Source: Solirubrobacter deserti
GTDB taxonomy: Bacteria > Actinomycetota > Thermoleophilia > Solirubrobacterales > Solirubrobacteraceae
Assembly: GCF_027587175.1 (NCBI RefSeq)
Contig: NZ_JAPCID010000008.1
Coordinates: forward strand, 62,001 to 126,000
Direction: 5' to 3'
DNA: 64,000 nt
The notes under the pieces were generated by a model. It saw only the letters and a list, made by a program, of their open reading frames with translations, had not been told where the DNA came from and ran no database searches. This document shows positions 45,992 through 51,301 of this stretch, in pieces. Position numbers and translations under genes: made by a program. Positions within the stretch are counted from its first letter, which is position 1. Each line of letters opens with the position of its first letter.

Positions 45992-46020
45992 GCGTGAGCG
46001 CAGGTCTAGCTTCGCCCGGC

Positions 46021-48312
46021 GTGAGAAGAACATCACGCGCGCTGCTCGCGGCGCTGGCCGTCGCCACGACCCTGCCGAGCGCTGCGCTCGCCGCGGATCC
46101 GGTCGTCGACGAGTCGTTCGACGCCGGCACGCTGCCCGCCGGCTGGACCGCCCGTGAAGGGACGTGGGACGTCACCGGCGGCCGGCTCGTCGGCCGCTCG
46201 ACCTCGTCGTCGCAGATCTCGCGATTGACGTTCGGCCCGCGCCTGGAGAACTACCGCTTCGAGGCGACCGTGCGCTTCGACTCGCTGGTCAACGGGGACG
46301 GAACCCGCTGGACCGCGCTGGCGCTGGACATGCCCGCGACGGGCGCGCCGCCGTGGTGGCAGGCGGCGATGCGCTCCAACACCACGGCCGCGAACGGCAC
46401 CGAAGTCGCTCAGCGGACCGCCGCCAACGCCTGGAACGTGCCGGCGACGGCGCCCGCGCCGCGCGCCGCCGGCGTGGGCCGTGACGTGCGCGTGGCGATC
46501 GAGGTGTACGGCCGCAAGGCGCGCTGGTTCTTCGACGGAACGCTGGTGCAGGAGGCGAACGTGCTGACCCGCTCCGCTGACGGCCGCCTCGGCTTCGTGG
46601 CCAACGGCTCCACCGTGTCCTTCGACGACGTGGTCGTCACCGCGCTCGAGCCGGAGTCCCTGGTCCGGCCGAACGACCGCGCCACGGTCCCGGCCGTGGT
46701 CGCCCATCGCGGCTACTCGGCCGTCGCGCCCGAGAACACGCTGGCCGCCATGGAAGCCGGTTCGCGCGCCGGCGCCGACTGGGTGGAGATCGACGTCGCC
46801 ACCAGCGCCGACGGCGTTCCCTACGTCCTGCACGACAACACCGTCGACCGCACCACGGCGGGCACCGGCGCGCTGAACACGCTGCAGTCGGGCGTGCTGG
46901 ACACGCTGGAGGCCGGCGAGTGGTTCTCGCCCGTGTTCGCGGGCGAGAAGCTCCCGCGCTTCTCCGACGCGCTGGACCAGCTGCAGCGCCAGTCGGCCGA
47001 CCTGCTGCTCGAGATCAAAGGCCCCGAGACGCGCGCCGAGATGGAGCGCATCATCGGCATGGTCCGCGACCGCGGGCTGATCGGCCGCGTGCTGCTGCAG
47101 AGCTTCGACGAGCAGGTGCTGCGGGACTCCTACGCGATCGAGCCGTCGCTGCGGCTCGGCCTGCTGCGCTCCTCACTGGACGCCGACCCGGTCGCGAAGG
47201 CGAAGGAGCTGCACGCGATCGCCTACAACCCGGCCGGCGACGCCCTCGCCACACGCCCGTCGATCATCGCCGACCTGAACGCTGCCGGCATCGCCGTGAT
47301 GCCCTACACGCTCGACCACCCCGACCAGTGGCTGCGGGCCCGCGACTTCGGCGTCGACGGCATCATCACCAACAAGCCTGGCGAGCTCTGGGGCTGGAAC
47401 GCCCGCTACAAGCAGGGCGGCGTCCCGAACCCGCCCAAGGCCGTCATCAAGTCGCCCGTCGCCGGCGCGGTGTTCTCGCGCGAGGACGAGCTCCTGTTGG
47501 CGTTCGACACCGCCGACTCGGCCGTCGCCGCGACGCTCGACGGCGAACCGGTCGTCGAGGGCGCGACCATCCCGGTCGCTTCGCTGTCGCTGGGCGAGCA
47601 CGTCGTCCGGCTCGTCTCGACATCCGCGAGCGGCGAGCAGGCCGAGGCCGAGGCACGGTTCACCGTCGCCCCCTCCGTCGCCGGCGTGGCCTCGCTGATC
47701 GCCACCCACCGCGGCATCCCGAACGCCCAGCGCGTCCTCCTGCTCGAGATGGCGCTGTCTGCGTCCTGGAAGCGCCTGCTCGACTTCGTCGACGCGCACG
47801 ACTCCGAGCTCGGCGAGCAAGTGGCCAAGCTGCTGACCGCCGACGCGACCGCCCTGCGCGCCATGCACGGCGACGGCCCGAGCCAGCCCGGCGAGCCGAT
47901 CCAGGGCCCGCCCGGCCCCGCCGGCCCTGCCGGTGCTGACGGCGCGCCCGGTCCCGCGGGCCCGATCGGCGCTGCCGGCCCGGCGGGTCCCGCCGGGCCG
48001 GCGGGTCCCGCCGGCCCGGCCCGCCCCCAGGGCCCGAAGGGGGACAAGGGCGACACCCTCGACGTCCCCGTGACGTGCGGCCTGTCCTCCCACCGCAAGG
48101 CGATCTCCTGCACGATCAAGACCATCGTCCCGACCTCGACCTTCAAGGGCACGGCCCGCCTCCAGGGCACCAAGGCCGCCAAGAAGATCGCCGGCACCGG
48201 CAAGACCAAGTTCCGCCTGAAGTCGACCAAGCGCCTCAAGAAGGCGCCCAAGGTCGTCCTGACGCTCCGGAGCGGCACCCGCTCGAAGGCCGTCACCGTC
48301 CGCGCCCGCTGA
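46021..48312 (+). CDS. Secreted glycerophosphodiester phosphodiesterase with N-terminal jelly-roll and collagen-like repeats
   Basis: About 763 residues from the GTG at 46021 (signal peptide [19 protein letters not shown]); a GTG at 45994 would add nine residues. Order: concanavalin/LamG-like beta domain (about 30-210), GDPD TIM barrel with V-A-H-R-G-Y-S...P-E-N-T-L, E-I-D-V and L-H-D catalytic motifs (about 225-460), Ig-like domain, helical linker, some fifteen G-P-A/G-P-P triplets (about 622-670), and a Lys-rich beta tail. Hydrolyses glycerophosphodiesters, perhaps from teichoic acids or lipids; the collagen-like part suggests an extracellular stalk. Confidence 0.9.
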
Positions 48313-48351: not shown

Positions 48352-48364
48352 CCGTGCGCGTGAG

Positions 48365-48446
48365 TGCGGGCGGAGGGACTCGAACCCCCACGCCTTGCGG
48401 CACCGGCACCTAAAGCCGGCGTGTCTACCAATTCCACCACGCCCGC
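48365..48446 (-). tRNA. tRNA-Leu (TAG)
   Basis: 82 nt. Acceptor GCGGGCG/CGCCCGC, anticodon stem CCGGC/GCCGG around CTTTAGG (anticodon TAG), long variable arm, T-arm GGGGGTTCGAGTCCCTC. Reads CUA/CUG. The LAGLIDADG gene begins upstream of it on the same strand. Confidence 0.94.
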
Positions 48447-48468
48447 GGGGGCCGCCCATGGTACGCCG

Positions 48469-49068
48469 TCACGCCTTGGGGCCGACGTGCTCGTCGAGCA
48501 GCGCGACGCTTCTGCGGTGCGAGATCGAGATGTTGCGGGCGTTCGACTTGGTCCAGCGGAGGCCGAGCTGCTCGCACGTCGCGCAGAACAGCCCGCGGAT
48601 GTCGGCTGAGATGTTGGAGAAGAAGTAGCGGGTGTAGGAGTACTCCGCGACTCGTCCGCTCGGCAGCTTGGTCTTGAACGTGTTCGTCGTGCGGCAGCCG
48701 TCCGAATGGATCAGACCGCGAAGAAATGCCCACGAATGCTCGTCGACGATGGCCTGCTGCCAGTCCTCGAGCACGATTGGGCGCTCGTGCTTGCGACCAA
48801 CGCCGTGCTGTGGAAACGCGTCCGGCCACCGCGTCCAACAGCTCGCGATGCGGACGCTGTTCTGCGTCGGGTGAGGGTTCACGTTGGCCACACGCCCCGG
48901 CACGGCCGCGACGATCGCCTCGCAGCATCGGGCGATGAGCAGCGGATACGCGCTGTCCGCGGTGATCACGAGTTGGTATGTGCGGGGCGGCTTGCCGATG
49001 TAGCCGTCGCCGAGATACCAACCCAAGAGGTAGGCGTAGGCCTCCCGATCAGCCGGCTCCCATGGCAC
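48469..49068 (-). CDS. LAGLIDADG-type homing-endonuclease-like protein
   Basis: 199 residues from the GTG at 49068. Two LAGLIDADG-like helices, Y-L-L-G-W-Y-L-G-D-G-Y-I near residue 13 and F-L-R-G-L-I-H-S-D-G near residue 115, each followed by a beta-rich stretch, give the pseudo-dimer layout of a single-chain enzyme. The acidic residues at the ends of the motifs (D-G in both) are present, so DNA cleavage is possible. It is free-standing, not in an intein or intron, and lies between tRNA-Leu and tRNA-Trp genes. Such short proteins recur in actinobacteria; some may act as regulators rather than nucleases. Confidence 0.8.
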   Translation of the reverse strand: MPWEPADREAYAYLLGWYLGDGYIGKPPRTYQLVITADSAYPLLIARCCEAIVAAVPGRVANVNPHPTQNSVRIASCWTRWPDAFPQHGVGRKHERPIVLEDWQQAIVDEHSWAFLRGLIHSDGCRTTNTFKTKLPSGRVAEYSYTRYFFSNISADIRGLFCATCEQLGLRWTKSNARNISISHRRSVALLDEHVGPKA

Positions 49069-49141
49069 GAACGTATGTTCGCTCGAGCCTCGGACGGATC
49101 GACGGCGCGGCGGTCACTACAATGATCGCCCGGCCGGCCCT

Positions 49142-49212
49142 GGGGGACTGGTGTAACGGGAACATAGGGGTCTCCAAAACCCTTGCTCGAGGTTCGATTC
49201 CTCGGTCCCCCG
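49142..49212 (+). tRNA. tRNA-Trp (CCA), unusual body
   Basis: 71 nt. Acceptor GGGGGAC/GTCCCCC, anticodon stem GGGGT/ACCCT with loop CTCCAAA (anticodon CCA), T-arm CGAGG/CCTCG, discriminator G as expected for Trp. The D-arm (GTGTAACGGGAACAT) resembles tRNA-Gln/Glu more than normal tRNA-Trp. Folds well and looks functional; it may be a second, non-standard Trp tRNA. Confidence 0.85.
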
Positions 49213-49267
49213 CTCTTCCGGCGCACCTGCGCCACCTTCGCGCACCCTGGCCGTTACGACAGGGTGC

Positions 49268-51301
49268 ATGCTGTTCCAGGACCCGCGGTCGATATACCTC
49301 TCGCCGATGGGTGAACTGGAGCCCGGCAGCGTCTTCGCCGGCCACAGGATCGAGATGGTGGCGGGGCGGGGCGGGATGGGCGTCGTCTATCGCGCCACCC
49401 AGCTGGCGCTCGATCGCACGGTCGCGCTGAAGGTCATCGCCGCCGGGCTGCTCGAGGACCAGACGGTCCGCGCCCGCTTCGTGCGCGAGTCGAAGATCGC
49501 GGCGAGCATCGATCACCCGAACGTGATCCCGATCTACTACGCGGGCGAGGAGCAGGGCATCGCCTACATCGCGATGCGCTACGTCGCCGGGGACGACGTC
49601 CGCAGCCTCGTCCGGCGCGAAGGCCCGCTCGCCTCGCAGCGCGCCGCCCACATGGTGGCCCAGACGGCCAGCGCGCTCGACGCCGCGCACGCCGCCGGCC
49701 TCGTGCACCGCGACGTCAAGCCCGCGAACGTCCTGCTCGGCCCCGAGGACCACGTCTACCTCACGGACTTCGGCCTCACCAAGCACGCGCTCAGCATCGC
49801 CGGCACGACGAAGCCCGGCCACTGGGTCGGGACGCTGGACTACGTCGCGCCCGAGCAGATCCGCGGGGAGCGCGTCGACGCCCGCGCAGACGTCTACGCC
49901 CTCGGCTGCCTGCTGCACTACACGCTGACCGGCGAGGTCCCGTACAAGCGCGAGGGGGACGAGGCCCGCCTGTGGGCCCACCTCAACGATCCGCCGCCCA
50001 AGCCGTCGGCGCACGGGGCGCCCGCCGCCTTCGACGAGGTCATCGCCAGAGCCCTCGCCAAGGACCCCGAAGCCCGCTACCCGTCCGCCGGGGATCTCGG
50101 CCGGGCAGCGAGAGCCGCGGCGGTCAACGACAGACCGCAGGAGAAGGAGCGGCTGGTCGCCAAGGGCGCCGCCGCGCCGGTCGAGTCGCCCACGGTGAGC
50201 GCCGCGCGGCCTGCCCCTCAGGCTCAAGACGAGGCTGAGACTCACGTCCAGGACCGCTCCAACCCCGGCGTCAAGCGCCGCCGCGCGCTGCTCGTCACCG
50301 CGCTGTTCGCCGCGGCGGGGGCGGGCATCGCGGCCGCGGTCGCGCTCGGCCTCGGCGACGGGGACGGCCCGGTTGCGCGGGCCACGCCGACCCCCACGCC
50401 GACCGCGACCCCCACGCCCGCCGGCGACGAGCCGCGCGTCGCGAAGGAGATCACGATCGGCCGTCGCCCGAACGTCGTCCGCGCCTACGGCGACAACGTC
50501 TACGTCGGCTCGTTCCGACAGGACCGCATCCGCATCGTCTCGGCCAAGACGGGCCAGGTGCGTTCCTATGCGCCGAAGGTCGGCATCGGCGTCAACGACG
50601 GTGCGTTCGGCTTCGGCTCGCTATGGCTGGCGATCGGCCGCGACAACCGGGTGGTGCGGCTCGACCAGCGCACCGGCCGCCCGGACGGCGCCCCCATCAG
50701 CGTCCCCGGCCCGCCCGGCGCGGTGGCGACCTCCAAGAACGCCGTCTGGGTCGCGCTCGTCCCGGGCGAGGGCGCGCCGGACCGGCTGCTCAAGCTCAAC
50801 CCGCGGACCGGCGCGACCGAGGCGAGCGTCGAGTACCCGTACGGGATCGGGTCGCTCGCGGCGAGCCCGAGCGCGCTGTGGGTCGCCGCCCGCCGGCGCG
50901 CGCGGGTCCAGCGCGTGAGCCTGGACACCGGCCGGGTCGTCAAGACGATCCGCGTCGGCAACAACCGCAGCGAGGACCTTGCCTACCGCGACGGCGCGCT
51001 ATGGGCCGCCGTGCCCAAGGACAACGCCGTCTACAAGATGACGACCGCGACCGGCGACCGGATCCCGATCAGCGTCGGCCAGCAGCCGCGCCAGCTCGCG
51101 CTCGGCGACGGCGTCGTCTACGTCACCAACTACAGCTCCAGCGACCTCTACACGATCGACGAGCGGAGCTCGCGCGTGGTCGGCGACCCGCTGCGGCTGT
51201 CCGTGAACCCGTTTTCGCTGGCGGTCGACGAAGACACGCTGTGGGTCTCCAGCCAGCCCGAGAACAAGCTCAGCCGCGTGGTCACAGGTCGCGGCGGGTG
51301 A
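49268..51301 (+). CDS. Transmembrane Ser/Thr protein kinase with extracellular beta-propeller
   Basis: 677 residues from the ATG at 49268; M14 (49307) is an alternative start. Kinase domain (about 25-280) with G-R-G-G-M-G-V-V-Y, A-L-K-V-I, catalytic H-R-D-V-K-P-A-N and D-F-G intact, and a G-T-L-D-Y-V-A-P-E-Q activation-loop end. One membrane helix follows (about residues 341-363), then a T-P-T-P linker and six or so beta-propeller/NHL-like repeats (W-V-A-L, Y-V-G-S, W-V-A-A) to the end. Typical actinobacterial sensor kinase with ligand-binding exterior. It converges with an FHA/winged-helix gene, a possible phospho-target. Confidence 0.93.
   Translation: MLFQDPRSIYLSPMGELEPGSVFAGHRIEMVAGRGGMGVVYRATQLALDRTVALKVIAAGLLEDQTVRARFVRESKIAASIDHPNVIPIYYAGEEQGIAYIAMRYVAGDDVRSLVRREGPLASQRAAHMVAQTASALDAAHAAGLVHRDVKPANVLLGPEDHVYLTDFGLTKHALSIAGTTKPGHWVGTLDYVAPEQIRGERVDARADVYALGCLLHYTLTGEVPYKREGDEARLWAHLNDPPPKPSAHGAPAAFDEVIARALAKDPEARYPSAGDLGRAARAAAVNDRPQEKERLVAKGAAAPVESPTVSAARPAPQAQDEAETHVQDRSNPGVKRRRALLVTALFAAAGAGIAAAVALGLGDGDGPVARATPTPTPTATPTPAGDEPRVAKEITIGRRPNVVRAYGDNVYVGSFRQDRIRIVSAKTGQVRSYAPKVGIGVNDGAFGFGSLWLAIGRDNRVVRLDQRTGRPDGAPISVPGPPGAVATSKNAVWVALVPGEGAPDRLLKLNPRTGATEASVEYPYGIGSLAASPSALWVAARRRARVQRVSLDTGRVVKTIRVGNNRSEDLAYRDGALWAAVPKDNAVYKMTTATGDRIPISVGQQPRQLALGDGVVYVTNYSSSDLYTIDERSSRVVGDPLRLSVNPFSLAVDEDTLWVSSQPENKLSRVVTGRGG

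What the first reader, a model, noticed from the sequence alone, without database searches (positions are those of the whole stretch)
48469..49212. Free-standing LAGLIDADG protein between tRNA genes, one tRNA-Trp with a Gln/Glu-like body
The two-motif protein lies 22 bases from tRNA-Leu and about 70 from tRNA-Trp(CCA). The Trp tRNA has a D-arm unlike the standard actinobacterial one. tRNA genes are typical homing sites, so the pair may be a mobile unit that brought its own tRNA, or a second tRNA-Trp with a special role.
Basis: partly seen in the sequence, partly recalled or inferred. Interest (0 to 1): 0.5.

Follow-up and report, generated by a model that had tools for sequence, protein, structure and literature searches.

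The report
Selfish DNA-cutting gene lodged beside tRNA genes
A small gene of the homing-endonuclease type sits between two essential tRNA genes, appears to be switched on by DNA damage, and belongs to a family found mostly next to leucine and tryptophan tRNA genes.

Summary
The LAGLIDADG gene (48469-49068, minus) between tRNA-Leu(UAG) and tRNA-Trp(CCA) is real, intact and under purifying selection. The tRNA-Trp is the only one found in this genome, and congeners without the endonuclease carry nearly the same odd-D-arm tRNA.

What is there is more interesting. The gene is a roughly 650-bp insertion between two divergent tRNA genes; within the genus it is intact, fossil or absent. It belongs to a free-standing family lodged beside tRNA-Leu and tRNA-Trp genes in Actinomycetota: 26 of 26 loci examined outside its order lie beside tRNA-Leu, and 70 of 70 Streptomyces genomes with the gene have it beside one tRNA(CAA). 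Endonuclease clades follow the tRNA type; the window's clade goes with tRNA-Trp. A perfect LexA (SOS) box overlaps its start codon, as in dinB of the same genome; 21 of 27 loci of the order have a box with at most one mismatch, 0 of 60 in Streptomyces. In Streptomyces the neighbouring tRNA-Leu(CAA) has two body forms at one locus, and the form follows the endonuclease lineage, not the flanking chromosome. Cleavage and LexA binding are inferred.

The parts
48469..49068 (-). Free-standing two-motif LAGLIDADG homing endonuclease, 199 aa, GTG start, without the N-terminal HTH that many homologues have
   Evidence: dN 0.183 / dS 0.895 against the Solirubrobacter phytolaccae homologue L082
49068..49081 (.). 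Perfect actinobacterial LexA (SOS) box CGAACGTATGTTCG; its last base on the minus strand is the first base of the GTG start
   Evidence: the same 14 letters with the same geometry precede dinB in this genome (L139)
49142..49213 (+). tRNA-Trp(CCA), the only one found in the genome; likely target neighbourhood of this clade's endonuclease
48364..48446 (-). tRNA-Leu(UAG), divergent partner of tRNA-Trp in the empty congeners too
48467..49113 (.). Approximate extent of the inserted unit (about 650 bp: LexA box + endonuclease gene), judged from empty sites of G004 and G005
   Evidence: boundaries approximate: the empty spacers are themselves divergent
49118..49123 (+). Presumed -10 element TACAAT of tRNA-Trp, inside a block kept in filled, fossil and empty sites
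   Evidence: role inferred; the consensus scan found no promoter
48458..48463 (-). Presumed -10 element TACCAT of tRNA-Leu, inside a block largely kept in filled, fossil and empty sites (TACGAT in G005)
   Evidence: role inferred

Best explanation
A free-standing (intronless) LAGLIDADG homing endonuclease gene that has invaded the spacer between two divergent tRNA genes. Shown: confident LAGLIDADG fold and both catalytic Asp residues; intact, fossil and empty states in one genus; family-wide lodging beside tRNA-Leu or tRNA-Trp genes, on either side and either strand, with endonuclease clades matching tRNA identity; a LexA box over the start codon of this copy and near the start in most order members examined. 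Inferred: the enzyme cuts DNA in or beside the tRNA gene (tRNA-Trp for this clade) of alleles that lack the insertion, and repair from the occupied allele copies the gene in. LexA keeps it silent until DNA damage or incoming single-stranded DNA (conjugation, transformation) induces SOS, when recombination proteins are also at hand. Essential, conserved tRNA genes offer a target that cannot easily be lost, and insertion between promoters leaves both tRNAs functional.
For: Fold and active site: AlphaFold pLDDT 93.6; VIA-align Z 16.0 to an intein endonuclease, 15.8 I-Tsp061I, 15.7 WhiA, 15.5 I-DmoI; D21 and D123 invariant in 27 of 27 aligned members.

Mobility: in the genus G000, G165 and G003 have it; G001 keeps box, first codons and last 18 codons in a 278-bp spacer; G004, G005 and G002 have 73-, 54- and 67-bp Trp-Leu spacers without box or gene.

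tRNA association: 49 of 50 loci have a tRNA, nearest one within 306 bp (several loci repeat one place; the exception is a fragment with no tRNA in its locus); 30 of the 30 loci that gave a hit (of 32 given; the other two are the weak viral candidates), 26 of 26 outside the order beside tRNA-Leu; 70 of 70 Streptomyces genomes with the gene, 87-399 bp after the matched tRNA(CAA) string.

Target by clade: 8 label changes on a 50-row tree; 9 of 9 rows of the window's clade (SH-aLRT 80; 90 without L029) have tRNA-Trp within 290 bp, 2 of 9 tRNA-Leu(UAG) within 450 bp.

SOS box: 13 exact and 21 with at most one mismatch of 27 order loci, 0.04 and 0.70 expected; 23 exact places in the genome vs 3 for the reversed pattern, among them lexA and dinB.

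Homing cycle: 60 intact by rule, 17 decayed, 22 without, of 99 Streptomyces sites (two of the 60 doubtful).
Against: No cleavage assay and no mapped target site. Empty congeners G004 and G005 have nearly the same tRNA-Trp, so how the host's own tRNA escapes cutting is not explained (the insertion itself may split the site). 0 of 60 Streptomyces loci have a LexA box with at most one mismatch (1.2 expected by chance), so SOS control is not a family trait, and 6 of 27 order loci also lack it. The consensus scan found no promoter between gene and tRNA. The window protein found nothing in phage or plasmid records at E 1e-3, so no vehicle is known. Many of the genome's 23 boxes were not tied to a clear gene.
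Confidence: 0.78

Rival explanations
1. A domesticated LAGLIDADG regulator, like WhiA, that controls the tRNA genes or an SOS function, with no nuclease activity.
For: WhiA is among the closest folds (Z 15.7); homologues have an N-terminal HTH_23-like domain (under cut-off in 2 of 4 homologues scanned; seen by eye in others); the gene is under purifying selection and has a LexA box.
Against: Both catalytic Asp are invariant in 27 of 27; sporadic presence with decayed and empty sites; sits on any side and strand of the tRNA, which suits insertion better than regulation. That WhiA lacks catalytic residues is recalled.
Confidence: 0.1
2. A tRNA-directed RNA enzyme (cleaves or matures tRNA-Trp/tRNA-Leu), encoded beside its substrate and induced by DNA damage.
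For: Close neighbourhood with Leu and Trp tRNAs; some LAGLIDADG proteins are RNA maturases (bI3 maturase among the matches).
Against: The window's tRNAs are read whole, without intron; a trans-acting RNase need not sit beside its substrate gene, nor be gained and lost as a block.
Confidence: 0.06
3. A passenger inherited with a conserved tRNA neighbourhood; the tRNA link is only shared ancestry of the locus.
For: 14 of the 30 loci hold both tRNA-Trp and tRNA-Leu(UAG), so that neighbourhood is partly conserved in the order.
Against: Several different tRNA loci, both sides and both strands, in different families of the phylum; Streptomyces tRNA-to-next-gene spacers of 56-152 bp in 16 of 20 measurable gene-free sites vs 860-1008 bp in 40 of 48 measurable intact sites.
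Confidence: 0.04

Closest known systems
T4 SegB and other free-standing seg/mob endonucleases (intronless homing)
   Same: Endonuclease gene in an intergenic spacer; SegB lies between tRNA genes and its target is given as the tRNA intergenic region (table in PMC2988022, passages seen)
   Different: SegB is GIY-YIG and phage-borne; this family is LAGLIDADG and chromosomal, the window protein found nothing in phage or plasmid records, it keeps to tRNA-Leu/Trp surroundings, and is LexA-boxed in one order
I-DmoI / I-Tsp061I (archaeal intron-encoded monomeric LAGLIDADG endonucleases)
   Same: Fold and two-motif monomer, Z 15.5 and 15.8
   Different: Those lie inside introns (entry titles); here no intron family is matched, aligned identity is 16-22 percent, and the family has its own signature FPQHGPGRKHxR...WQ
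WhiA (DUF199)
   Same: LAGLIDADG fold in Actinobacteria (Z 15.7); a DNA-binding HTH (recalled)
   Different: WhiA is a regulator (recalled); here catalytic Asp invariant, gene sporadic, HTH N-terminal where present and absent from the window's copy
LexA regulon genes (lexA, dinB) of the same genome
   Same: Same box; same letters and same start-codon overlap as dinB
   Different: Those are host repair genes; no paper holding LAGLIDADG with LexA and SOS response was found, and the two holding homing endonuclease, LexA and SOS box looked unrelated from their listing

Membership tests
LAGLIDADG homing endonuclease | Two LAGLIDADG motifs with acidic catalytic residues | tested here: met
   LGDG and HSDG; D21 and D123 invariant in 27 of 27
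LAGLIDADG homing endonuclease | LAGLIDADG fold | tested here: met
   Pfam LAGLIDADG_3 19.4 bits, under its 22.5 cut-off
LAGLIDADG homing endonuclease | Site-specific DNA cleavage | not testable with these tools
   needs purified protein
Free-standing (intronless) homing endonuclease | Not inside an intron or intein; intergenic, with empty sites in relatives | tested here: met
   22 gene-free of 99 Streptomyces sites
Free-standing (intronless) homing endonuclease | Biased inheritance in crosses | not testable with these tools
   needs a conjugation or recombination experiment
LexA regulon | LexA box at the promoter/start | tested here: met
LexA regulon | LexA binding and induction by DNA damage | not testable with these tools
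   needs footprint or expression data
WhiA | Membership of the WhiA/DUF199 family by sequence | tested here: inconclusive
   Pfam scan of the window protein lists no WhiA family up to E 10; similar fold only
Second or special tRNA-Trp | Another tRNA-Trp in the genome | tested here: not met
   one pattern hit; one Trp among 46 tRNAs; assembly 97.3 percent complete

The most novel reading that the evidence does not exclude
A homing endonuclease that drives replacement of essential tRNA genes: lineages of the enzyme specialise on, or carry along, particular tRNA bodies, so that attack and escape swap the whole body of tRNA-Leu(CAA) in Streptomyces (class II versus an arm-less class I form at one and the same locus) and may underlie the several tRNA-Trp bodies of Solirubrobacterales. 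In the window's order the same element is wired to the SOS response.
Probability: 0.35. Interest if true: 0.85.

Novelty: new variant of a known kind. Interest (0 to 1): 0.66.

Why it matters
Free-standing homing endonucleases are known best from phages. A chromosomal LAGLIDADG family devoted to the surroundings of tRNA-Leu and tRNA-Trp, found in 70 of 101 sampled Streptomyces genomes with empty, decayed and intact sites, would be a natural laboratory for the homing cycle in bacteria. SOS control would show how such an element times its cut to the host's repair state. The link with two different bodies of tRNA-Leu(CAA) makes a testable case for selfish DNA reshaping an essential part of the translation machinery.

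Tried and rejected
Special or extra tRNA-Trp: rejected for this genome.

Unusually variable tRNA-Trp as a mark of endonuclease attack in the order: not supported. Mean pairwise identity in loci L002-L031 is 0.824 for Trp (29), 0.771 for Gly(TCC) (6), 0.872 for Leu(UAG) (14), 0.912 for Pro(GGG) (4), 0.758 for Leu(CAA) (4).

Self-resistance by a diagnostic tRNA base: not seen by eye in the genus.

Class I tRNA(CAA) only with the endonuclease: rejected. Genomes with the gene 43 class I / 27 class II, without 23 / 6, Fisher p = 0.10. The partial Mantel link (0.223, p 0.001) comes from class alone; inside class I it is 0.07, inside class II -0.05.

SOS box as a family trait: rejected for Streptomyces. 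The first count cut off boxes overlapping the start in L002, L008 and L095 and was repeated.

Before the count I picked, by eye, the tRNA-like match per genome from the list; G582 and G627 had none and were dropped (99 of 101 kept). ARAGORN later read tRNA-Leu(CAA) in 99 of 99. The pattern asks for A after the anticodon and fixed spacings, so other CAA tRNAs could be missed. The 'intact' rule (one tblastn match over 90 percent of a family row, no stop) lets in G588 (internal gap) and G636 (a stop), so 60 is an upper figure.

PF14528 over the own genome gave no match, since the protein scores under the cut-off. Phage and plasmid records: no match at E 1e-3. IMG/VR: two weak candidates, no hit to family rows at E 1e-6, not followed further. 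PHROGs: one of 27 members with one weak hit. NCBIfam: none for the window protein. L092 (Dojkabacteria, 37 percent over residues 13-70) was not followed.

Full report
What is in the window. A 199-codon frame (48469-49068, minus) lies between tRNA-Leu(UAG) (48364-48446, minus) and tRNA-Trp(CCA) (49142-49213, plus), 22 and 73 bases away. The window comes from a Solirubrobacter, judging by its protein: identical in Solirubrobacter sp. CPCC 204708 and 77 percent identical in S. phytolaccae (order Solirubrobacterales, phylum Actinomycetota). The protein scores under Pfam's LAGLIDADG_3 cut-off, but its model is sure (pLDDT 93.6) and matches an intein endonuclease, I-Tsp061I, WhiA and I-DmoI at Z 15.5-16.0. 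Both catalytic Asp residues are invariant in 27 of 27 aligned members. dN/dS against the S. phytolaccae homologue is 0.183/0.895, a sign of selection for function, with dS high. No intron family is matched.

The tRNA-Trp. It is the only tRNA-Trp found in the genome: one pattern hit, and one Trp among the 46 tRNAs over the Rfam cut-off, all read by ARAGORN (assembly 97.3 percent complete). Its D-arm resembles that of own tRNA-Gln(CUG) and Glu(UUC), the rest does not. A BLAST search with it matched 39 of 61 genomes, its own included. ARAGORN reads tRNA-Trp in 29 of the 30 loci L002-L031 of that search. The Trp pattern is found in 120 of 146 genomes of the family, 66 of 71 good ones. G004 and G005, which lack the endonuclease, have a tRNA-Trp one base different at the same place; that of G002 differs more. 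G002 has a second Trp-like match, and G004 and G005 a second pattern match that I did not check. So it is this lineage's ordinary tRNA-Trp; by letters, tRNA-Trp bodies of several kinds occur in the family, also within single tool-coded genera.

The insertion. In the genus, G000, G165 (same species) and G003 have the gene. G001 has a 278-bp spacer that keeps the box, the first codons and the last 18 codons (94 percent). G004, G005 and G002 have spacers of 73, 54 and 67 bp. Blocks on both sides that look like the -10 elements of the two divergent tRNA promoters are kept in filled and empty sites (TACAAT; TACCAT, TACGAT in G005), so the unit, about 650 bp, sits between them. Exact ends cannot be fixed because the empty spacers differ. 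The consensus promoter scan found nothing here.

The family sits beside tRNA genes. In its taxonomic family 31 of 146 genomes have a homologue. 49 of 50 loci (several are repeats of one place) have a tRNA, the nearest within 306 bp; the exception is a fragment. In a phylum sample 29 of 396 genomes have the family at E 1e-10. The 30 loci that gave a hit all have a tRNA within 300 bp, and the 26 outside the order all have tRNA-Leu: mostly CAA, also UAG, CAG, UAA. The gene is upstream or downstream and on either strand. A rough chance rate, by my arithmetic from 46 tRNAs in 7.09 Mb, is under 1 percent. On a 50-row tree, picked from the loci at hand, the tRNA label changes 8 times; clades go with Trp (two), Leu(UAG), Leu(CAG) and Leu(CAA) (quick tree, 18 of 47 inner branches open). 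The window's clade of 9 (SH-aLRT 80) has tRNA-Trp in 9 of 9 and Leu(UAG) in 2 of 9, on either side of tRNA-Trp, so tRNA-Trp is the likelier target here.

Domains. Many longer homologues add an N-terminal HTH (HTH_23, under cut-off, in 2 of the 4 homologues scanned) and often a CPRC motif before the two LAGLIDADG motifs. The copies of the window, S. phytolaccae and G008 lack the HTH and start directly at the core.

SOS box. The 14 bases at 49068-49081 are CGAACGTATGTTCG, the actinobacterial LexA box (consensus recalled). The genome has 23 exact places against 3 for the reversed pattern. One lies 24 bases before lexA itself and one overlaps the GTG of dinB exactly as here. One precedes a frame that I read as uvrA from its sequence (recalled; Pfam gave only ATPase hits under cut-off to the 149 residues tried). 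Many of the others were not tied to a clear gene. In 27 order loci, one per place, short fragments left out, 13 have an exact box and 21 at most one mismatch, against 0.04 and 0.70 in first-order Markov shuffles. In 10 of the 21 the start codon GTG overlaps the box's last base. In 60 Streptomyces loci there is none with at most one mismatch, 1.2 being expected by chance. The fossil in G001 keeps the box; the empty spacers of G002, G004 and G005 lack it. So the box most likely came with the element and is a trait of this order.

Streptomyces as the clear case. 70 of 101 genomes have the gene. In 70 of 70 it lies 87-399 bp after the matched tRNA(CAA) string on the same strand. Of the 99 genomes in which I found such a tRNA, 60 have an intact gene by the rule (two of them, G588 and G636, doubtful), 17 a decayed one and 22 none. 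The distance from tRNA to the next gene (which I read as pyruvate kinase, recalled) is 56-152 bp in 16 of 20 measurable empty sites and 860-1008 bp in 40 of 48 measurable intact ones. This is the picture of the homing cycle: invasion, decay, loss.

Two bodies of one tRNA. In 66 of these 99 genomes the tRNA(CAA) is a short class I form without the long variable arm, in 33 the usual class II; ARAGORN reads 99 of 99 as Leu(CAA). Of 67 loci compared, some from the same genome, 65 (48 class I, 17 class II) share the same upstream flank; the other two are pattern hits elsewhere. The tRNA has 73 distinct sequences in 99 genomes (also without the last four letters), mean identity 0.67, 0.80 within class I and 0.79 within class II. 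As a small control, in the 15 genomes listed two other tRNA-like strings are the same in 14 of 15, by my count. Body class changes 7 times on the endonuclease tree (300 shuffles: mean 19.0, least 12) but 18 times on the tree of the upstream flank (shuffles: mean 19.1, least 14) (60 rows, quick trees). So tRNA class goes with the endonuclease lineage, not with the flanking chromosome. Either the two move together or each lineage attacks one class. The link holds for class only, not inside a class, and class I also occurs without the gene.

How it most likely works. Under SOS, LexA lets go, the enzyme is made, cuts in or near the tRNA gene of an unoccupied allele on incoming or resident DNA, and repair from the occupied copy installs the gene. 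Cleavage, site and induction are inferred. Self-protection is open: the insertion may split the recognition site.

What is known. Free-standing endonucleases and intronless homing are known from T4; SegB sits between tRNA genes and its target is the tRNA intergenic region (PMC2988022, passages seen; the SegB paper itself was not held). A 2026 paper on SegB was seen in the search listing only (PMC13096335). Searches for LAGLIDADG, homing endonuclease, tRNA genes, Streptomyces, LexA/SOS and odd tRNA-Leu showed in their listings no paper on this family, on a LexA-controlled LAGLIDADG gene or on the two Streptomyces tRNA-Leu(CAA) bodies. Only titles and starts of abstracts were seen, one search listed 12 of 54 papers, and the library holds open-licence papers only.

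Noticed in passing
L083, L084, L086, L147, L148, L150, L176 and many of L206-L231 (Streptomyces tRNA(CAA) locus): The tRNA with anticodon CAA is a 74-77-nt class I form without long variable arm in 66 of 99 Streptomyces genomes, at the same locus as the usual class II form in others; no other CAA tRNA was picked up by the pattern used.
   Followed up: partly
L109 (own taxonomic family, G015): A similar arm-less class I tRNA(CAA) outside Streptomyces, next to a homologue of the endonuclease, while same-genus genomes G035 and G166 have class II.
   Followed up: no
L131 1501-2304 (own genome C59, about 49.3-50.1 kb): An exact LexA box 7 nt before a 230-aa frame with HTH domains whose Cys/His-rich C-terminus looks like HNH by eye (Pfam finds no family in it). 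The frame ends about 17 bp before tRNA-Asn: perhaps a second, unrelated SOS-controlled tRNA-linked endonuclease.
   Followed up: partly
L122 (own genome C22, about 153.1 kb): An exact LexA box overlapping the start of a radical-SAM-like protein whose cysteine motif seems interrupted by an intein-like sequence (read by eye).
   Followed up: no
L127 (C42) and L142 (C129), own genome: Two similar small proteins (MTSDGS...) start at or beside an exact LexA box; unknown SOS genes.
   Followed up: no
G586 C1 2578970-2580346 and G598 C50 6967-8344: Two tandem copies of the endonuclease gene downstream of the same tRNA(CAA) in two Streptomyces genomes.
   Followed up: no
window 45994-48312: A GDPD phosphodiesterase domain protein with a collagen-like GPAGPAG stretch (Pfam GDPD and Collagen).
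   Followed up: no
window 49268-51301: A Ser/Thr protein kinase gene directly downstream of tRNA-Trp (Pfam Pkinase).
   Followed up: no
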